Under the pieces are notes generated by a model that was not told where the DNA came from, did no database searches, and saw only the letters and a list, made by a program, of their open reading frames with translations. Shown here piece after piece: positions 19,800 to 31,010 of a DNA stretch of 32,983 bases. Both the position numbers and the translations under genes were made by a program. Position 1 is the stretch's first letter; each line of letters begins with the position of its first letter. Origin of the DNA: an uncultured Clostridia bacterium (GTDB lineage: Bacteria > Bacillota > Clostridia > Christensenellales > Borkfalkiaceae); the NCBI GenBank assembly GCA_904419945.1, contig CAJFTM010000014.1:1-32983 (forward strand), given 5' to 3'.

Positions 19800-20780
19800 T
19801 TATTCCCACTCGATGGTGCCGCAGGGCTTAGGCGTAAGATCATACAAGACGCGGTTAACGCCAGGCACCTCTTTCGTGATGCGATCGGTAATGTGTTCTA
19901 AAAGAGAGAAGGGCACATCCTCGACCGTTGCCGTCATCGCATCCTTTGTATTGACCGCTCGAAGTATGACGGGATACTCGAACGTGCGCTTGCCGCCCTT
20001 GACTCCGACAGACTTAAAATCGGGCACGACGGTAAAATACTGCCAAACTTTTCCAGATAGTCCGTTTTTTGCGAACTCTTCGCGCAGGATAGCATCTGAC
20101 TCGCGCACGCATTCCAAGCGCTCGCGCGTGATCGCCCCGAGACAGCGCACCCCCAATCCGGGGCCGGGGAACGGCTGACGATAGACCATTTCATCGGGCA
20201 AACCGAGCGCCTTGCCGACGACACGGACTTCGTCTTTGAACAGGAACTTTAAAGGTTCGACCAGTTCAAATTGCAGATCTTCGGGTAAACCGCCTACATT
20301 GTGATGCGCTTTGACGGGACCGCTCTCCAAAATATCCGGATAGATGGTACCCTGGGCCAAAAACTCGATCCCGTTTAGCTTGCGCGCCTCTTCCTCGAAT
20401 ACGCGAATGAATTCTGCTCCGATGATCTTGCGCTTCTTTTCCGGTTCGGCAACGCCTGCAAGCTTATCGAGAAAACGATCGACCGCATCGACATAGATAA
20501 GGTTGGCATTCATCTGGTGACGGAATACCTCGACGACCTGTTCCGGCTCACCCTTGCGCAGCAAACCGTGGTTGACATGCACGCAGACGAGATTTTGCCC
20601 GATCGCGCGAATGAGAAGTGCGGCGACGACGGACGAATCGACCCCTCCCGACAATGCGAGCAGCACCTTCTTATTTCCGACCTGATTTTGAACGGCCGCA
20701 ACCTGTTCGGCGATGAACGCTTGCGCCTGTTCCGGCGTCTCGATGCGCGCCATGTTTTCCGGGCGCTTGTTGCTTTCCAT
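19800..20780 (-). CDS. Stand-alone GMP synthetase ATP-pyrophosphatase subunit (no amidotransferase domain)
   Basis: The 326-residue product is the C-terminal half of GuaA only: the PP-loop SGGVDSS (residues 44-50), the conserved block [56 protein letters not shown], and the dimerisation end [15 protein letters not shown]. Every motif needed to adenylate XMP and accept ammonia appears intact. The class I glutamine amidotransferase domain is absent, as in archaeal GuaAb subunits. Start ATG 20780 is preceded by AAAGGAGG; the open frame further upstream is non-coding. It lies immediately after a full-length guaA but has its own promoter and is separated by a terminator. It may use free ammonia, borrow the amidotransferase of its neighbour, or work on another nucleotide. 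Sequence divergence shows it is not a recent duplicate. Confidence 0.88.
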
Positions 20781-20838
20781 AAACAGCTTCCTCCTTTGAC
20801 CGCGCCCGCCAAACGATGTGCGGGCTATCTTTGAAGAC

Positions 20839-20867
20839 AGTATACCATATTTCCCCAAAAAAGAAAA
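20839..20867 (-). promoter_or_regulatory. Promoter for the stand-alone guaA gene
   Basis: On the minus strand TATACT (20839-20844) lies 17 bp after TTTTCT, within the U-tract of the preceding terminator. The -35 is weak. Confidence 0.5.
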
Positions 20868-20894
20868 CCCCTTTCCGAAAAATTTCGGAAAGGG
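20856..20894 (-). terminator. Intrinsic terminator after full-length guaA
   Basis: A perfect 12-bp stem (CCCTTTCCGAAA at 20869-20880 with 20883-20894) is followed on the minus strand by GGTTTTCTTTTTT, about 30 bp past the guaA stop. Confidence 0.85.
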
Positions 20895-20926
20895 ACTGAA
20901 AATCGTAAAAAAAGCAATCCAACCCA

Positions 20927-22459
20927 TCACTCCCATTCGATGGTTGCCGGGGGTTTGGAGGTGATATCGTAGACGATGCGGTTAGCGTGCTCGACTTCGT
21001 TGATGATGCGGCTGGAGATCGTCTCCAACACATCATACGGAATGCGCGCCCAATCGGCCGTCATGGCGTCTACACTGGTGACCGCACGGATCGCAATGAC
21101 CGGCTCATATGTACGCGCGTCGCCCATTACGCCGACCGTATATGTCGAAGTGATGACCACAAAATACTGCCAGATGTCGCGGGAAAGGCCGGCTCTGGCG
21201 ATCTCTTCGCGCAGAATGTAGTCGGCATCGCGCAGCGTCTGCAACTTTTCCTCGGTCACTTCGCCCATGATGCGGATCGCGAGGCCGGGGCCGGGAAAAG
21301 GCTGTCGCCACACGACGGAATCGGGCAAACCGAGCTCGGTACCCACTTTGCGGACCTCGTCCTTAAACAGATCGCGCAGAGGCTCGATGATCTCCTTGAA
21401 ATCGACGACAGAGGGAAGGCCGCCCACGTTGTGATGGCTTTTGATGACTGCCGAAGAACCCTTGCCGCTCTCGACCACGTCGGGATAAATAGTTCCCTGC
21501 ACGAGGTAGTCGACCGCGCCGATCTTTTTTGCCTCCGCTTCAAATACTTTGATGAATTCCTCGCCGATGATCTTGCGCTTCCTCTCCGGATCAGAGACGC
21601 CGGCAAGCTTTTTGAGAAAAAGTTCGCGCGCGTCCGCCTTGATCAGGTTCATGCCCAATCCGTCGCGGAATACGGAAACGACCTCTTCCGCCTCCCCTTT
21701 GCGCAGCAGACCGTGATCGACGAAGACGCAAATCAAATTGTCGCCCGCGGCACGGTGCACGAGCGCTGCGGCGACGGCGCTGTCTACGCCGCCGCTCATC
21801 GCGCACAACACCTTTTTGCCGGCAAGTTTTGCTTTGAGCAACTCGACCTGTTCGGTGACAAAGCCGGACATCGTCCAGTCTCCCTTTGCCCCGCAGACGG
21901 AGTACAGGAAATTGTGAAGGATCTTGTCCCCTTCCATGGTATGATGCACTTCGGCGTGGAACTGAATGCCGTATATTTTACGAGACACATCCTCAAAAGC
22001 GGCGGCCGGGCAGGTCTTTGTCGTTGCAGTGACGGTAAAACCGGCGGGGACACGGCTGACATAGTCGGTATGGCTCATCCAACAGATATTCTGCGGCTGC
22101 ATCCCCGCAAAGAGGGCGCTGCCGCCATAAGAAATATCGCTCTTGCCGTACTCGCGCGTTTCGGCATGGGTGACGTCGCCGCCCAGATCATACGCGATGA
22201 GCTGGCAGCCGTAACAGATGCCGAGGATGGGAATGCCCAGCTGGTAAATGCGGGGGTCCACATCGGGAGCGCCGTCCGCATAGACGCTGTTCGGCCCGCC
22301 TGTAAAGATGATGCCGATGGGGGCATATTCGCGAATGCGCTCGATGCCGATATCGTACGGGAGGAGATCGCAATAGACCCCCTGCTCGCGCACGCGACGC
22401 GCGATCAGCTGATTGTATTGTCCGCCAAAATCGAGGACGAGAACTTTTTCGTGTCGCAT
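20927..22459 (-). CDS. guaA: GMP synthase (glutamine-hydrolysing)
   Basis: The full-length 510-residue enzyme converts XMP to GMP using ATP and glutamine. The N-terminal class I glutamine amidotransferase domain begins [19 protein letters not shown] and has the catalytic triad Cys82 (GICYGCQ), His168 and Glu170 (FHAEV; HPEV is more usual). The ATP-pyrophosphatase domain has SGGVDSA at residues 222-228, and the C-terminal dimerisation domain ends [13 protein letters not shown]. Start ATG 22459 has GGAGAG upstream and fits the conserved N-terminus; an earlier ATG is 12 codons upstream. It follows guaB by 70 bp across a hairpin (22493-22522). Purine control by the hairpin is possible, but no riboswitch is visible. 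Confidence 0.96.
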
Positions 22460-22487
22460 ATATCTCTCCGATATGTAAAATTTGCTT

Positions 22488-22522
22488 TGCAACAAGAAAG
22501 CACCGCATCGTTGCGGTGCTTT
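22488..22522 (-). terminator. Hairpin between guaB and guaA (terminator or attenuator)
   Basis: AAAGCACCGCA (22497-22507) and TGCGGTGCTTT (22512-22522) form an 11-bp stem with a 4-nt loop, followed on the minus strand by TTTCTTGTT. The T-tract is interrupted, so partial read-through into guaA is likely. Confidence 0.65.
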
Positions 22523-22529
22523 CCGCCTC

Positions 22530-24002
<1,473 letters not shown>

Positions 24003-26777: not shown

Positions 26778-26800
26778 GCTTTTATGTCACGCATAGTACT
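26778..26800 (-). repeat. Copy B of the intergenic repeat (AGTACTATG element)
   Basis: On the minus strand AGTACTATGCGTGACATAAA occupies the 36-bp gap between the GNAT-alkyltransferase stop and hemW. It includes part of the stop codon region. Confidence 0.6.
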
Positions 26801-27627
26801 TATTTTTGTCTGCCGGACCAGCCATAACGGGCCAGATCGACATAAAAACACCCGTCCCGTTCGACGGACGGAACCCCCTCCGCGGCCAGCAGATCGCGCT
26901 GCACGGAAGGTCCGCCGAAGGCAAAGGCGGGAGCAAGGCGCCCCTCACGATTGACGACGCGGTGACAAGGGATCTCGCCCGGAGTCGGATTAACGTGCAG
27001 CGCATACCCCACTGCGCGCGAAGCGCGCGGACGGCCGCACGACCGAGCGATTTGCCCGTATGTCGCGACACTGCCGCGAGGAATGCTGCGCACTACTGCA
27101 TAGACGCTTGCAAAAAAATTTTCCGCCGAGGGCGATGCGGAAACTGCCGCAGACGGACCAAAATCCGACCCGGGCGAAAGATCTTTCCTGTACACCTTCC
27201 ATTGGACGAAGGCACCGTTGATCTCTTCGCGGCATTCCTCCCGCACGGAATAGCCGTGTTTTTCGTAAAACGGCTCCCCGGGAATGGATGCATCCAACTC
27301 CGCATACGCAAAATTTTGCGCAATTTTTCCTTCCGCAAAGGAAAGCAATGCACTGCCATACCCGCAGTGCTGCGCTGCGGGCAACACAAACAGGCGACGA
27401 ATGTGCGGGCCGTCTACCGTGACCGTCCCTACAATCTTCTCCTCCTCGCGCAGGACGTATAACATCCCATTATTTATGTCTGACAAAATACTCTGTAAAC
27501 TATGAAATTCGTGAAAAGAAGCGATGATTTCGGGCACATAGACGGGCGCATAATTGACGCGAATGCATTCGCGAACCAGAGAAAAGACCGCCTCGCCGTC
27601 GCTCCTTACAGCTCGTTCGACACACAT
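26800..27627 (-). CDS. GNAT acetyltransferase fused to an alkylguanine-alkyltransferase (MGMT/ATL) domain
   Basis: The 275-residue product has two domains. Residues 1-150 form a GNAT N-acetyltransferase with the acetyl-CoA loop QHCGYGSALL (86-95) and the C-terminal FYEKHGYSVREE strand. Residues 170-270 form the DNA-binding half of methylguanine methyltransferase: FFASVYAVVRSIPRGSVATY, then GQIARSCGRPRASRAVGYAL, with the arginine finger region, then PCHRVVN with the alkyl-accepting Cys221, and AFAFGGPSVQRDLLAAEG. The N-terminal MGMT half is missing, as in alkyltransferase-like proteins, but Cys is kept (ATL proteins often have Trp here). A role in recognising or repairing alkylated guanines is likely; the GNAT substrate is unknown. 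ATG 27627 follows the lepA stop within one base and has no ribosome binding site, so translation is coupled to lepA. Confidence 0.85.
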   Translation of the reverse strand: MCVERAVRSDGEAVFSLVRECIRVNYAPVYVPEIIASFHEFHSLQSILSDINNGMLYVLREEEKIVGTVTVDGPHIRRLFVLPAAQHCGYGSALLSFAEGKIAQNFAYAELDASIPGEPFYEKHGYSVREECREEINGAFVQWKVYRKDLSPGSDFGPSAAVSASPSAENFFASVYAVVRSIPRGSVATYGQIARSCGRPRASRAVGYALHVNPTPGEIPCHRVVNREGRLAPAFAFGGPSVQRDLLAAEGVPSVERDGCFYVDLARYGWSGRQK

Positions 27628-29627: not shown

Positions 29628-29661
29628 ACAAAAGCCCTCCGCGCGATGCGCGGAGGGCAAA
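29628..29661 (-). terminator. Intrinsic terminator after the NAD(P)-binding protein gene
   Basis: An 11-bp GC-rich stem (GCCCTCCGCGC at 29634-29644 with 29648-29658) with a 3-nt loop, followed on the minus strand by TTTTGT. It lies about 30 bp past the stop of the 29691 gene. Confidence 0.8.
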
Positions 29662-29690: not shown

Positions 29691-30338
29691 TCAGTCCTGC
29701 CGGCGATTATAAACGATCGGCATGCGGCCCGCATATCCGTCTGAATGGATGACGTCGGCCAAACAGGAGGCCAGGTTTTCCGTAGAGACGCCCGCCTTGA
29801 TCTTTTCCCCCTCCTCCGCGAGGACATAGCCTCCCCGCGAATGCTTCAAAAAGGGATTGAGATAACGAATGACCGTATAACGGAGGCCGCTCCCGCGCAC
29901 AGCCTCAAGCAGGGCGTCTGCATCGCGATACATATGCGGAGCGAAAGAGTGAAACAGCCTGCCGAACAAGCGAAGCATCCCGGAACGCTCGGACGGGCCT
30001 TCCCCGCATGCCGGCGCCGCGATAAAAATACGGCTCTTGCCACAGGCGCGCATCGCCGCAAACACGGCCGACAAGCCGTCGCTGTGCGGAGTTGTACGAT
30101 CTTTACGCCGGCCGAGGACAGCATCGACACAGCAGACCACGGCATCCGCCGCGCGCACGGCGCGCTGCATGGCTTCCGGATCATCCATTCTCCCGCAGAC
30201 GACCTCGCATGCAGTGCAATCCGCCTTGCAGCCGTCTGCATCATCCGTATACAAATAGACGTAATCGCCGCCGGCGATCAATTTTTGCAGGACTGCCCTG
30301 CCGATCTGCCCGCACGGCCAAAATAATGCGATCTTCAT
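29691..30338 (-). CDS. NAD(P)-binding atypical short-chain dehydrogenase/NmrA-like protein
   Basis: The 215-residue protein starts MKIALFWPCGQIGRAVLQKL, a Rossmann beta-alpha-beta unit with a modified glycine motif (PxGxIGxxV in place of GATGxxG). It continues with a conserved segment AVRAADAVVCCVDAVLG, PHSDGLSAVFAAMRACGKSR and GSGLRYTVIRYLNPF, the usual layout of NAD(P)H-binding proteins of the NmrA/atypical SDR type. Such proteins act as reductases or redox-sensing regulators; the substrate cannot be told. Several cysteines occur (for example CKADCTACEVVC), a cluster that may matter under oxidative stress. Start ATG 30338 has GGGGGAG close upstream; ten earlier codons are unsupported. It is divergent from an OhrR-like gene, and OhrR-type boxes cover its promoter, so it is very likely a target of that regulator. 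Confidence 0.8.
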   Translation of the reverse strand: MKIALFWPCGQIGRAVLQKLIAGGDYVYLYTDDADGCKADCTACEVVCGRMDDPEAMQRAVRAADAVVCCVDAVLGRRKDRTTPHSDGLSAVFAAMRACGKSRIFIAAPACGEGPSERSGMLRLFGRLFHSFAPHMYRDADALLEAVRGSGLRYTVIRYLNPFLKHSRGGYVLAEEGEKIKAGVSTENLASCLADVIHSDGYAGRMPIVYNRRQD

Positions 30339-30399
30339 GCGCTCCCCCGCACTGCCCGAACAGAACAATGCCCAAAGGCGGGTATCCCGCCGAAATTTT

Positions 30400-30429
30400 T
30401 ACAATTATATTGTATACAATTTAATTGTA
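30400..30429. promoter_or_regulatory. Two tandem OhrR-type operator boxes
   Basis: TACAATTATATTGTA (30400-30414) and TACAATTTAATTGTA (30415-30429) are adjacent 15-bp inverted repeats. They match the Bacillus subtilis OhrR operator pattern TACAATT-A-AATTGTA, which is also a tandem pair. They cover the minus-strand promoter of the 29691 gene (-10 TATAAT at 30404-30409, -35 TTATAC at 30427-30432, 17-bp spacer). Confidence 0.85.
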
Positions 30430-30432
30430 TAA
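30404..30432 (-). promoter_or_regulatory. Promoter of the NAD(P)-binding protein gene
   Basis: On the minus strand TTATAC (30427-30432), 17-bp spacer, TATAAT (30404-30409). It lies entirely within or against the OhrR-type boxes, as expected for a repressed promoter. Confidence 0.6.
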
Positions 30433-30445
30433 GTCAATCTTTTTC

Positions 30446-30474
30446 TTGACATTTTTTGAAAAAAAGGTTAAAAT
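30446..30474 (+). promoter_or_regulatory. Promoter of the OhrR-like gene
   Basis: TTGACA (30446-30451), 17-bp spacer, TAAAAT (30469-30474). It starts 17 bp from the operator boxes, so autoregulation is possible but weaker than control of the divergent gene. Confidence 0.8.
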
Positions 30475-30527
30475 GACACTATTCTAAAAATGGATGGGTT
30501 CTGCAACGACAACCCCAAACAAAACAG

Positions 30528-30953
30528 ATGGAAAAGGAACGAAATCTTCCCCTGCAACTGGATAACGAGATGGGTTTTACCCTGTATGCCTGTTCAAAGG
30601 AACTCATCCGCAAATATTATACCCCCGTTCTGGAACGGCTGGAACTGACGTACACGGCATACTTGGCGATGCTTGCTCTGTGGGAACAGGACGGCGTGCG
30701 CGTTTCTGACTTGGGAAAGCGGTTGTATCTCGACTCCGGCACGCTGACGCCCCTGCTCAAAAAAATGGAAAAGCAGGGACTCGTCGAACGACGGCGGAGC
30801 GAAGAGGACGAACGCACCGTGCGCATCTTTCTCACTGCACAGGGCCGCGCCCTGCGAGAAAGGGCAAAGCCTCTGCTCGCAACATTGCGGCATACGCTGC
30901 CAGACGCCCCCGCATTGTTCACACAGCTCAAAAATTTGCTGCGCGGATTATAA
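30528..30953 (+). CDS. MarR-family regulator of the OhrR type, with shifted cysteine
   Basis: The 141-residue protein is a winged-helix MarR repressor close to OhrR: compare the Bacillus OhrR stretches LxNQLCFxLYAxSRE, TYPQYLxLLxLWE, LYLDSGTLTPxLKxxE and RSEEDER with LDNEMGFTLYACSKE, TYTAYLAMLALWE, LYLDSGTLTPLLKKME and RSEEDER here. OhrR senses organic hydroperoxides through a cysteine in NQLCF. Here that position is Gly16, and a cysteine appears six residues later (Cys22, in YACS). It probably still binds DNA as a dimer, because operators of the OhrR type sit directly upstream. Its sensing chemistry must differ. No ohr peroxidase gene is nearby. The start ATG 30528 is the only one that keeps the full N-terminal helix; AGATGGAAAAGG gives only a weak site. 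Confidence 0.88.
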   Translation: MEKERNLPLQLDNEMGFTLYACSKELIRKYYTPVLERLELTYTAYLAMLALWEQDGVRVSDLGKRLYLDSGTLTPLLKKMEKQGLVERRRSEEDERTVRIFLTAQGRALRERAKPLLATLRHTLPDAPALFTQLKNLLRGL

Positions 30954-30964
30954 CCAATAACGGC

Positions 30965-31010
30965 AAGCGCGCTCATCCGCAGGTTTGCGGATGAGCGCGC
31001 TTTTTCTTCG
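30965..31010 (+). terminator. Intrinsic terminator after the OhrR-like gene
   Basis: A 16-bp stem (AGCGCGCTCATCCGCA at 30966-30981 with 30986-31001) with a 4-nt loop and TTTTTCTTC on the plus strand. It may also slow the convergent tyrosine phosphatase transcript, but that exit lacks a T-tract. Confidence 0.85.

What the first reader, a model, noticed from the sequence alone, without database searches (positions are those of the whole stretch)
30400..30953. OhrR-type operator pair with an OhrR-like regulator that has lost the canonical sensing cysteine
Two adjacent 15-bp inverted repeats at 30400-30429 match the known Bacillus OhrR operator pattern almost exactly. The regulator next to them keeps the OhrR DNA-binding region, but the position of the peroxidatic cysteine (NQLCF) is Gly16 and a cysteine sits six residues later (Cys22 in YACS). 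The usual target (ohr peroxidase) is absent. The boxes cover the promoter of a Cys-rich NAD(P)-binding protein instead. This suggests an OhrR branch with altered sensing chemistry and a new target.
Basis: partly seen in the sequence, partly recalled or inferred. Interest (0 to 1): 0.72.

Follow-up and report, generated by a model that had tools for sequence, protein, structure and literature searches.

The report
Peroxide repressor that lost its sensor
In one group of uncultured bacteria, a repressor descended from a well-known peroxide sensor has lost the cysteine that does the sensing, kept its DNA-binding part, and travels with one new partner gene, so it probably answers to a different signal.

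Summary
Two OhrR-type boxes (30400-30429) overlap the promoter of a divergent Rossmann-fold gene. The regulator (30528-30953) is OhrR-like, with Gly16 in place of the peroxidatic cysteine and Cys22 as its only cysteine. The pair occurs in 9 of 40 genomes of the genus, always adjacent. Residue 16 is Gly in 8 and Thr in 1 of these, but Cys in 191 of 191 collected relatives outside the genus that have the residue. Two further near-invariant positions changed in the same branch (Gln14 to Glu, Gln44 to Ser/Ala). A rooted tree places the branch inside OhrR, so the cysteine was lost. Both genes are under purifying selection. No Ohr or glutathione peroxidase gene was found in the 40 genomes. Cys22 as a relocated sensor is not supported: 69 of 192 relatives have it, 68 together with Cys16, and its invariance is uninformative. 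Best reading: an OhrR-derived repressor that no longer senses peroxide by the usual route, more likely answers to a bound ligand (rival: an electrophile at Cys22), and controls one small reductase-like protein. The inducer is unknown. New variant of a known kind.

The parts
29691..30338 (-). divergent gene: 215-aa Rossmann-fold protein (Pfam NAD_binding_10), the proposed target; a longer in-frame TTG start at 30368 is possible
   Evidence: Pfam E 1e-18; model pLDDT 87, closest folds biliverdin IX-beta/flavin reductase; orthologue in the same 9 of 40 genus genomes
29634..29658 (-). terminator-like hairpin after the Rossmann gene
   Evidence: consensus match only
30400..30414 (.). OhrR-type box 1; its right half is also the -10 of the minus-strand promoter
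   Evidence: right half ATTGTA in 9 of 9 orthologous intergenic regions, left half TACAAT exact in 5 of 9
30415..30429 (.). OhrR-type box 2, exact match to the published B. subtilis box; only its left half is well kept in orthologues
30409..30437 (-). promoter of the Rossmann gene, TTGACT-17-TACAAT; box 1 covers its -10 and box 2 its spacer
   Evidence: GTCAA and ATTGTA present in 9 of 9 orthologues
30446..30474 (+). promoter of the regulator, TTGACA-17-TAAAAT, outside the boxes
   Evidence: TTGAC present in 9 of 9 orthologues
30528..30953 (+). OhrR-derived MarR-family regulator, 141 aa, Gly16, Glu14, Ala44, single Cys22
30965..31002 (+). terminator-like hairpin after the regulator
   Evidence: 17 pairs, consensus match only

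Best explanation
This is a two-gene unit: an OhrR-derived repressor and one divergently transcribed Rossmann-fold protein, each apparently transcribed alone. Shown by sequence: the regulator keeps the OhrR DNA-binding region and OhrR-type boxes that overlap the partner's promoter. Also shown: in this branch the peroxide-reaction site was altered (Cys16 to Gly or Thr, Gln14 to Glu, Gln44 to Ser or Ala) while the three tyrosines at 20, 31 and 42 stayed. Inferred: the repressor sits on the boxes and blocks the partner's promoter; organic hydroperoxide no longer releases it by the usual route; in most members two of the three substitutions shrink side chains and one adds a charge, which suggests a pocket that now binds a small ligand (perhaps a substrate or product of the partner protein), and binding releases the repressor. 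The partner is inferred to be a reductase-like or ligand-binding Rossmann protein of the biliverdin/flavin reductase fold. I put about 0.85 on loss of canonical peroxide sensing and about 0.45 on the ligand-pocket mechanism.
For: Position 16 is Cys in 191 of 191 collected OhrR-like proteins outside the branch with the residue present, Gly 8 and Thr 1 in the branch. Gln14 in 191 of 191 others against Glu 9 of 9; Gln44 in 98% of 192 others against Ser 8, Ala 1; Tyr20, 31, 42 kept. Branch monophyletic: 0.999 in a 201-row tree, SH-aLRT 99 in a rooted 91-row tree built without columns 14, 16, 22 and 44. Pair in the same 9 of 40 genomes. No other match to the regulator at E 1e-8 or better in the genus except one weak 68-residue match; OsmC 0 of 40, GSHPx 0 of 40. 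dN/dS (Nei-Gojobori; 5 of 6 pairs tried, the sixth having saturated dS) 0.05-0.10 for the regulator and 0.10-0.24 for the partner, dS 0.74-2.11. A box with up to 2 mismatches lies within 400 bases before the regulator in 9 of 9. Cys-to-Ser at the equivalent position makes EstR (C16S) and OspR (C24S) repress without peroxide induction (PMC5201249 and PMC4999210, passages).
Against: No binding, expression or inducer data exist. Retention of all three tyrosines could mean some reaction chemistry is kept. Cys22 is in 9 of 9 and the only cysteine in 7 of 9 (Cys57 also in 2 of 9), so a thiol switch is not excluded. The ligand pocket is argued from substitution types alone; the model is of modest quality (pLDDT 71). 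Six other columns also differ between branch and relatives, so the three pocket positions are not the only changes. The partner's dinucleotide motif is eroded in most orthologues, which weakens the reductase reading. One-mismatch box sites between genes elsewhere in the genome mean the partner may not be the only target.
Confidence: 0.45

Rival explanations
1. The sensing thiol moved: Cys22 is the redox or electrophile sensor (sulfenic acid, mixed disulfide, quinone adduct or persulfide) and releases the repressor from the Rossmann gene.
For: Cys22 is present in 9 of 9 and is the only Cys in 7 of 9; the single-Cys MarR protein MgrA is released by oxidation or persulfidation (review PMC11211675, passages); the partner has a reductase fold.
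Against: Cys22 is a common residue outside the branch: 69 of 192, 68 of them with Cys16 as well. Its invariance is not significant: 0.65 changes expected in the branch. It lies about 120 degrees round the helix from residue 16 (ideal-helix arithmetic). Ala, Val, Ser, Thr, Leu and Ile also occur at this position, so it may be only a packing residue.
Confidence: 0.3
2. The regulator is no longer an inducible switch: it is a fixed or dose-dependent repressor that sets a low level of the partner.
For: Loss of the sensing Cys in EstR and OspR mutants gives a repressor that peroxide does not release.
Against: Low dN/dS of the regulator and conserved replacement at three otherwise near-invariant positions suggest a kept sensing function.
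Confidence: 0.2
3. Ordinary OhrR whose missing cysteine is a sequencing, assembly or decay artefact.
For: All nine genomes are draft assemblies of several contigs.
Against: Cys16 is absent from 9 of 9 species genomes with open frames and dN/dS is well below 1.
Confidence: 0.02

Closest known systems
Bacillus subtilis OhrR (1-Cys type; PDB 1z91, 1z9c)
   Same: Closest solved relative by sequence (E 2.9e-34) and by fold; same box sequence; nearly the same recognition-helix region (alignment); tyrosines kept.
   Different: Lacks the peroxidatic Cys15 equivalent (Gly16); Gln14 and Gln44 replaced; partner is not ohr.
Pseudomonas aeruginosa OspR with gpx, and the OhrR-gpx neighbours seen here
   Same: OhrR homologues whose partner is not ohr: 86 of 192 relatives outside the branch lie within 1.2 kb of a glutathione peroxidase, 68 of the 119 from the family and class searches; OspR from PMC4999210 abstract and passages.
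   Different: Those keep the sensing Cys and have a peroxidase beside them; here neither is true.
Agrobacterium EstR with estC
   Same: OhrR paralogue next to a non-peroxidase enzyme, with operators over the promoters (PMC5201249 abstract and passages).
   Different: EstR senses cumene hydroperoxide through Cys16 and uses a different operator.
Biliverdin IX-beta / flavin reductase (BLVRB) and ChuY fold, Pfam NAD_binding_10
   Same: The partner's model matches BLVRB (E 9.8e-14, TM 0.77) and ChuY (E 2e-10).
   Different: Sequence identity 23% and 16% to these two; first glycine of GxxGxxG is Trp in 8 of 9 and the second is lost in 3 of 9.

Membership tests
OhrR (organic hydroperoxide-sensing MarR repressor) | MarR winged-helix fold with closest similarity to OhrR | tested here: met
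   nested in the OhrR clade of a rooted tree. NCBIfam's Vibrio-type OhrR model scores 137.9 bits, under its cut-off of 200
OhrR (organic hydroperoxide-sensing MarR repressor) | peroxidatic Cys in the NQxCF motif of helix 1 | tested here: not met
   Gly 8 of 9, Thr 1 of 9
OhrR (organic hydroperoxide-sensing MarR repressor) | tyrosines of the sensing pocket (Tyr30/Tyr41 of EstR, Tyr36/Tyr47 of X. campestris OhrR) | tested here: met
   Tyr31 and Tyr42 in 9 of 9 and in 192 of 192 others; role from PMC5201249 passage
OhrR (organic hydroperoxide-sensing MarR repressor) | TACAATT-N-AATTGTA box over the target promoter | tested here: met
   core box with up to 2 mismatches in 8 of 9 of the 240-base stretches at the regulator's start against 2.8% of letter shuffles, 9 of 9 within 400 bases. 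Sequence only, no binding test
OhrR (organic hydroperoxide-sensing MarR repressor) | peroxidase target (ohr or gpx) nearby or in the genome | tested here: not met
   0 of 9 loci; OsmC 0 of 40, GSHPx 0 of 40 genus genomes
OhrR (organic hydroperoxide-sensing MarR repressor) | release from DNA by organic hydroperoxide | not testable with these tools
   needs binding assays
NAD_binding_10 / BLVRB-like reductase (partner) | Pfam domain and fold | tested here: met
NAD_binding_10 / BLVRB-like reductase (partner) | GxxGxxG dinucleotide motif | tested here: not met
   complete in 1 of 9 orthologues; first Gly is Trp in 8 of 9, third Gly kept in 9 of 9

The most novel reading that the evidence does not exclude
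A natural conversion of a peroxide-reactive repressor into a ligand-responsive one: the OhrR reaction site was dismantled at three otherwise near-invariant positions and rebuilt as a binding pocket, while operator recognition was kept and the target changed from a peroxidase to a Rossmann protein whose own cofactor site is eroding and which may make, bind or remove the ligand.
Probability: 0.4. Interest if true: 0.62.

Novelty: new variant of a known kind. Interest (0 to 1): 0.5.

Why it matters
OhrR is defined by one reactive cysteine. A conserved branch without it, with its operator kept and a fixed new partner, is a natural experiment on how a redox repressor changes its signal without changing its DNA site. 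It also warns that naming a gene 'OhrR' by similarity alone could assign the wrong signal in this genus.

Tried and rejected
Relocated-sensor reading of Cys22: tested by its distribution (69 of 192 relatives outside the branch) and by a rate comparison (0.65 changes expected, none seen); not supported, not excluded.

Cys-rich metal or redox motif in the partner: the cluster at Cys37, 41, 44 and 48 is shared only with the nearest relative (2 of 9); two Cys, 70 and 192, are invariant. Rejected as a defining feature.

Wider regulon: 8 of 9 genomes have a site with up to one mismatch; G093 has none, its box having two. I read the five further one-mismatch sites of the window's genome and the one further exact site, in G231. 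By eye, four of the five (C1, C9, C10, C25) lie before a plausible gene start, and three of these (C9, C10, C25) overlap a TTGACA...TACAAT promoter before a small lipoprotein-like ORF; the likeness may be the -10 alone. The fifth (C17) also lies ahead of an ORF. A wider regulon is neither shown nor excluded.

Partner outside the genus: 1 of 396 order genomes, the window's own; with the profile 4 of 358 phylum genomes, again including its own. Of the three others I examined two (L236, L237): no OhrR-like gene and no box in the stretch held. L238 was not examined.

No title or abstract start listed there describes a natural OhrR lacking the sensing cysteine; I read listings and passages only, and subscription papers are mostly not held. 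The SCO7424 paper (passages) describes a MarR regulator without cysteine in Streptomyces coelicolor that the authors liken to PntR and PenR.

Rows dropped before counts: six duplicate loci (L031-L034, L036, L148) and identical sequences were collapsed, and the weak G206 match (L111) and the loci were left out of that script; 201 rows remain. L227 lacks the N-terminal segment in its frame, so it has no residue 16. From the class search I fetched the matches at E 2.7e-31 or better, and of the weaker ones ten, used as outgroup. Genome contigs returned the best 80 of 130 relatives. The rooted tree used 91 rows: 81 of the 201 (70 of them drawn at random) and 10 outgroup rows. In one search one outside row was dropped for too little upstream sequence.

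Full report
OBSERVATION. Box 2 is an exact copy of the B. subtilis box as quoted in PMC6034001 (passage); box 1 differs at one position. The pair exceeds chance: 4 strand matches against a mean of 0.23 in 100 shuffles, none of which reached 4. In the window's whole genome the exact pattern is found only here, with five further one-mismatch sites. The boxes cover the spacer and -10 of a minus-strand promoter that points at the Rossmann gene; the regulator's own promoter starts after a gap of 16 bases beyond box 2. Terminator-like hairpins follow both genes (7 such hairpins found in the region against 2.8 in shuffles), so this looks like a closed two-gene unit.

WHAT IT IS. The regulator is MarR-family (Pfam MarR 3.2e-18). 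By sequence its closest solved relative is B. subtilis OhrR (2.9e-34), ahead of X. campestris OhrR, SarZ, AbfR and MgrA, and its AlphaFold model ranks the same entry first (model pLDDT 71). NCBIfam's Vibrio-type OhrR model matches at 137.9 bits, below its cut-off of 200.

CO-INHERITANCE. The genus search covered 40 genomes: 9 have a full-length or nearly full-length orthologue of the regulator, and the same 9 have the partner. Among the 14 genomes at least 90% complete, 2 have it, so incompleteness does not explain its patchiness. A tenth regulator match, in G206, covers 68 residues at E 1.4e-9 and I do not count it as an orthologue. The two genes are adjacent and divergent in 9 of 9. In 7 of the 8 other genomes a lepA match lies in the stretch fetched beside the pair, as in the window; the eighth contig (G231) ends nearby. 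This suggests one inherited chromosomal place rather than repeated capture. The family search, 301 genomes drawn from a larger group, gave 42 genomes with a relative, 9 of them in the genus, and the genome-contig scan returned 80 of 130 relatives, 5 of them copies of genus members already found.

THE SENSING SITE. I collected 201 distinct OhrR-like proteins (family, class and genome contigs sources): 9 in the branch and 192 outside. Position 16 is Cys in 191 of 191 outside proteins with the residue present (one, L227, is truncated). In the branch it is Gly in 8 and Thr in 1 (L007). One search listed nine columns in which the branch is at least 8 of 9 uniform with a residue that is rare outside; three of these are near-invariant outside. 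Besides position 16 they are Gln14 (191 of 191 outside; Glu in 9 of 9) and Gln44 (98% of 192 outside; Ser in 8, Ala in 1). Tyr20, Tyr31 and Tyr42 are kept. A tree of all 201 gives the branch support 0.999, with Treponema parvum and an Acholeplasmatales MAG next to it (0.80). A rooted tree of 91 rows without columns 14, 16, 22 and 44 puts the branch (99) inside the OhrR clade (96), whose other 72 rows all have Cys16. The ten outgroup MarR proteins have Asn (7), Ala, Gly or a gap there, so the cysteine arose at the base of OhrR and was lost in this branch. 37 of that tree's 88 inner branches are unresolved, so the exact sister is open.

CYS22. This residue is not new: 68 of 192 outside proteins have Cys16 and Cys22 together, and L227 has Cys22. 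The 17 Cys/non-Cys changes counted on the tree predict 0.65 in the branch, so its invariance is not evidence of function. Ideal-helix arithmetic puts it about 10 A away and about 120 degrees round from residue 16 (inference). A thiol switch at Cys22 stays possible but has no positive support here beyond its being the only Cys in 7 of 9.

THE PARTNER. It is a Pfam NAD_binding_10 protein (1e-18), whose model (pLDDT 87) matches human biliverdin IX-beta/flavin reductase first and also the anaerobilin reductase ChuY. The profile search against PDB sequences gives the same top family at E about 3e-6. The glycine motif is eroded: Trp at the first Gly in 8 of 9, second Gly kept in 6 of 9, third in 9 of 9. 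Whether it still binds a dinucleotide is unknown. The Cys cluster is confined to the window and G251.

CONTRAST WITH RELATIVES. Within 1.2 kb, 86 of 192 outside OhrR-like genes have a glutathione peroxidase gene and 41 of 192 an ohr gene; none has this partner at E 1e-4. In the branch the figures are 0, 0 and 9 of 9 (short fetched loci and single-sequence queries make the outside counts lower bounds). All 41 ohr neighbours come from the 73 genome contigs rows; of the 119 family and class rows 68 have gpx and none ohr. No OsmC-family gene and no glutathione peroxidase was found in any of the 40 genus genomes, although controls rang in 12 and 6 of 14. The box is kept: in the 240 bases scanned at the regulator's start, a core site with up to 2 mismatches is found in 8 of 9 branch loci against 2.8% of letter shuffles, and in 36 of 191 outside loci against 3.1%. 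The ninth (L002) has an exact core site farther upstream, so within 400 bases it is 9 of 9. The right half of box 1 doubles as the -10, so part of its conservation may be promoter constraint; the left half is exact in 5 of 9.

SELECTION. dN/dS by Nei-Gojobori in five closer pairs is 0.05-0.10 for the regulator and 0.10-0.24 for the partner, with dS from 0.74 to 2.11; a sixth pair (L007-L009) had saturated dS and gave no usable ratio. Both genes are maintained.

MECHANISM. Published Cys-to-Ser mutants at the equivalent position, EstR C16S (PMC5201249, passages) and OspR C24S (PMC4999210, passages), still repress but are not induced by organic hydroperoxide. The natural Gly16/Thr16 branch should therefore be blind to peroxide by the usual route. 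Because the site was changed at three positions and then conserved, I favour a new signal over a locked repressor, and a bound ligand over Cys22 chemistry; this last choice is weak. Steps shown: sequence, co-inheritance, promoter layout by consensus, loss on the tree. Steps inferred: binding, repression, inducer, enzyme activity.

VERDICT. It probably works like an OhrR-type repressor at the DNA but fails OhrR membership on two tested features, the sensing cysteine and a peroxidase target. I file it as an OhrR-derived variant. I found no description of such a natural branch in the listings, which cover open-licence papers only.

Noticed in passing
window 19800-22495, minus strand: A complete guaA-like ORF (522 aa) is followed at once by a second, shorter GMP-synthase-like ORF (378 aa) that seems to lack the glutaminase half; a guaB-like ORF lies at 22530-23993. 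Read by eye, names recalled.
   Followed up: no
window 26800-27627, minus strand: A 275-aa ORF looks like an acetyltransferase fused to a methyltransferase-like (MGMT/ATL) domain; in the four relatives where it was matched near lepA, 103-142 residues align. Names recalled.
   Followed up: no
G231:C92:229-243 (loci L132, L262): The only further exact copy of the box pattern in the nine genomes outside the pair's own locus; it lies near a contig start with no clear gene on its left in the stretch read. A possible second target.
   Followed up: partly
L258, L259, L261 (G000 contigs C9, C10, C25): Three one-mismatch box sites overlap similar TTGACA...TACAAT promoters before small lipoprotein-like ORFs, two of them with almost the same flanking sequence; looks like a repeated promoter-gene cassette.
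   Followed up: no
L236 (G1244:C36): Closest partner homologue outside the genus found (E 1.2e-36) sits beside a TetR-like gene (name recalled) with no OhrR-like gene or box in the stretch held, and keeps an intact glycine motif.
   Followed up: partly
family and class loci, e.g. L010, L012, L049: OhrR-like genes of the window's class often lie beside a glutathione peroxidase gene (68 of 119 family and class rows) and never, in these rows, beside ohr; the 41 ohr neighbours are all in genome contigs rows, the five printed being Acidovorax, Paracidovorax and Variovorax.
   Followed up: partly
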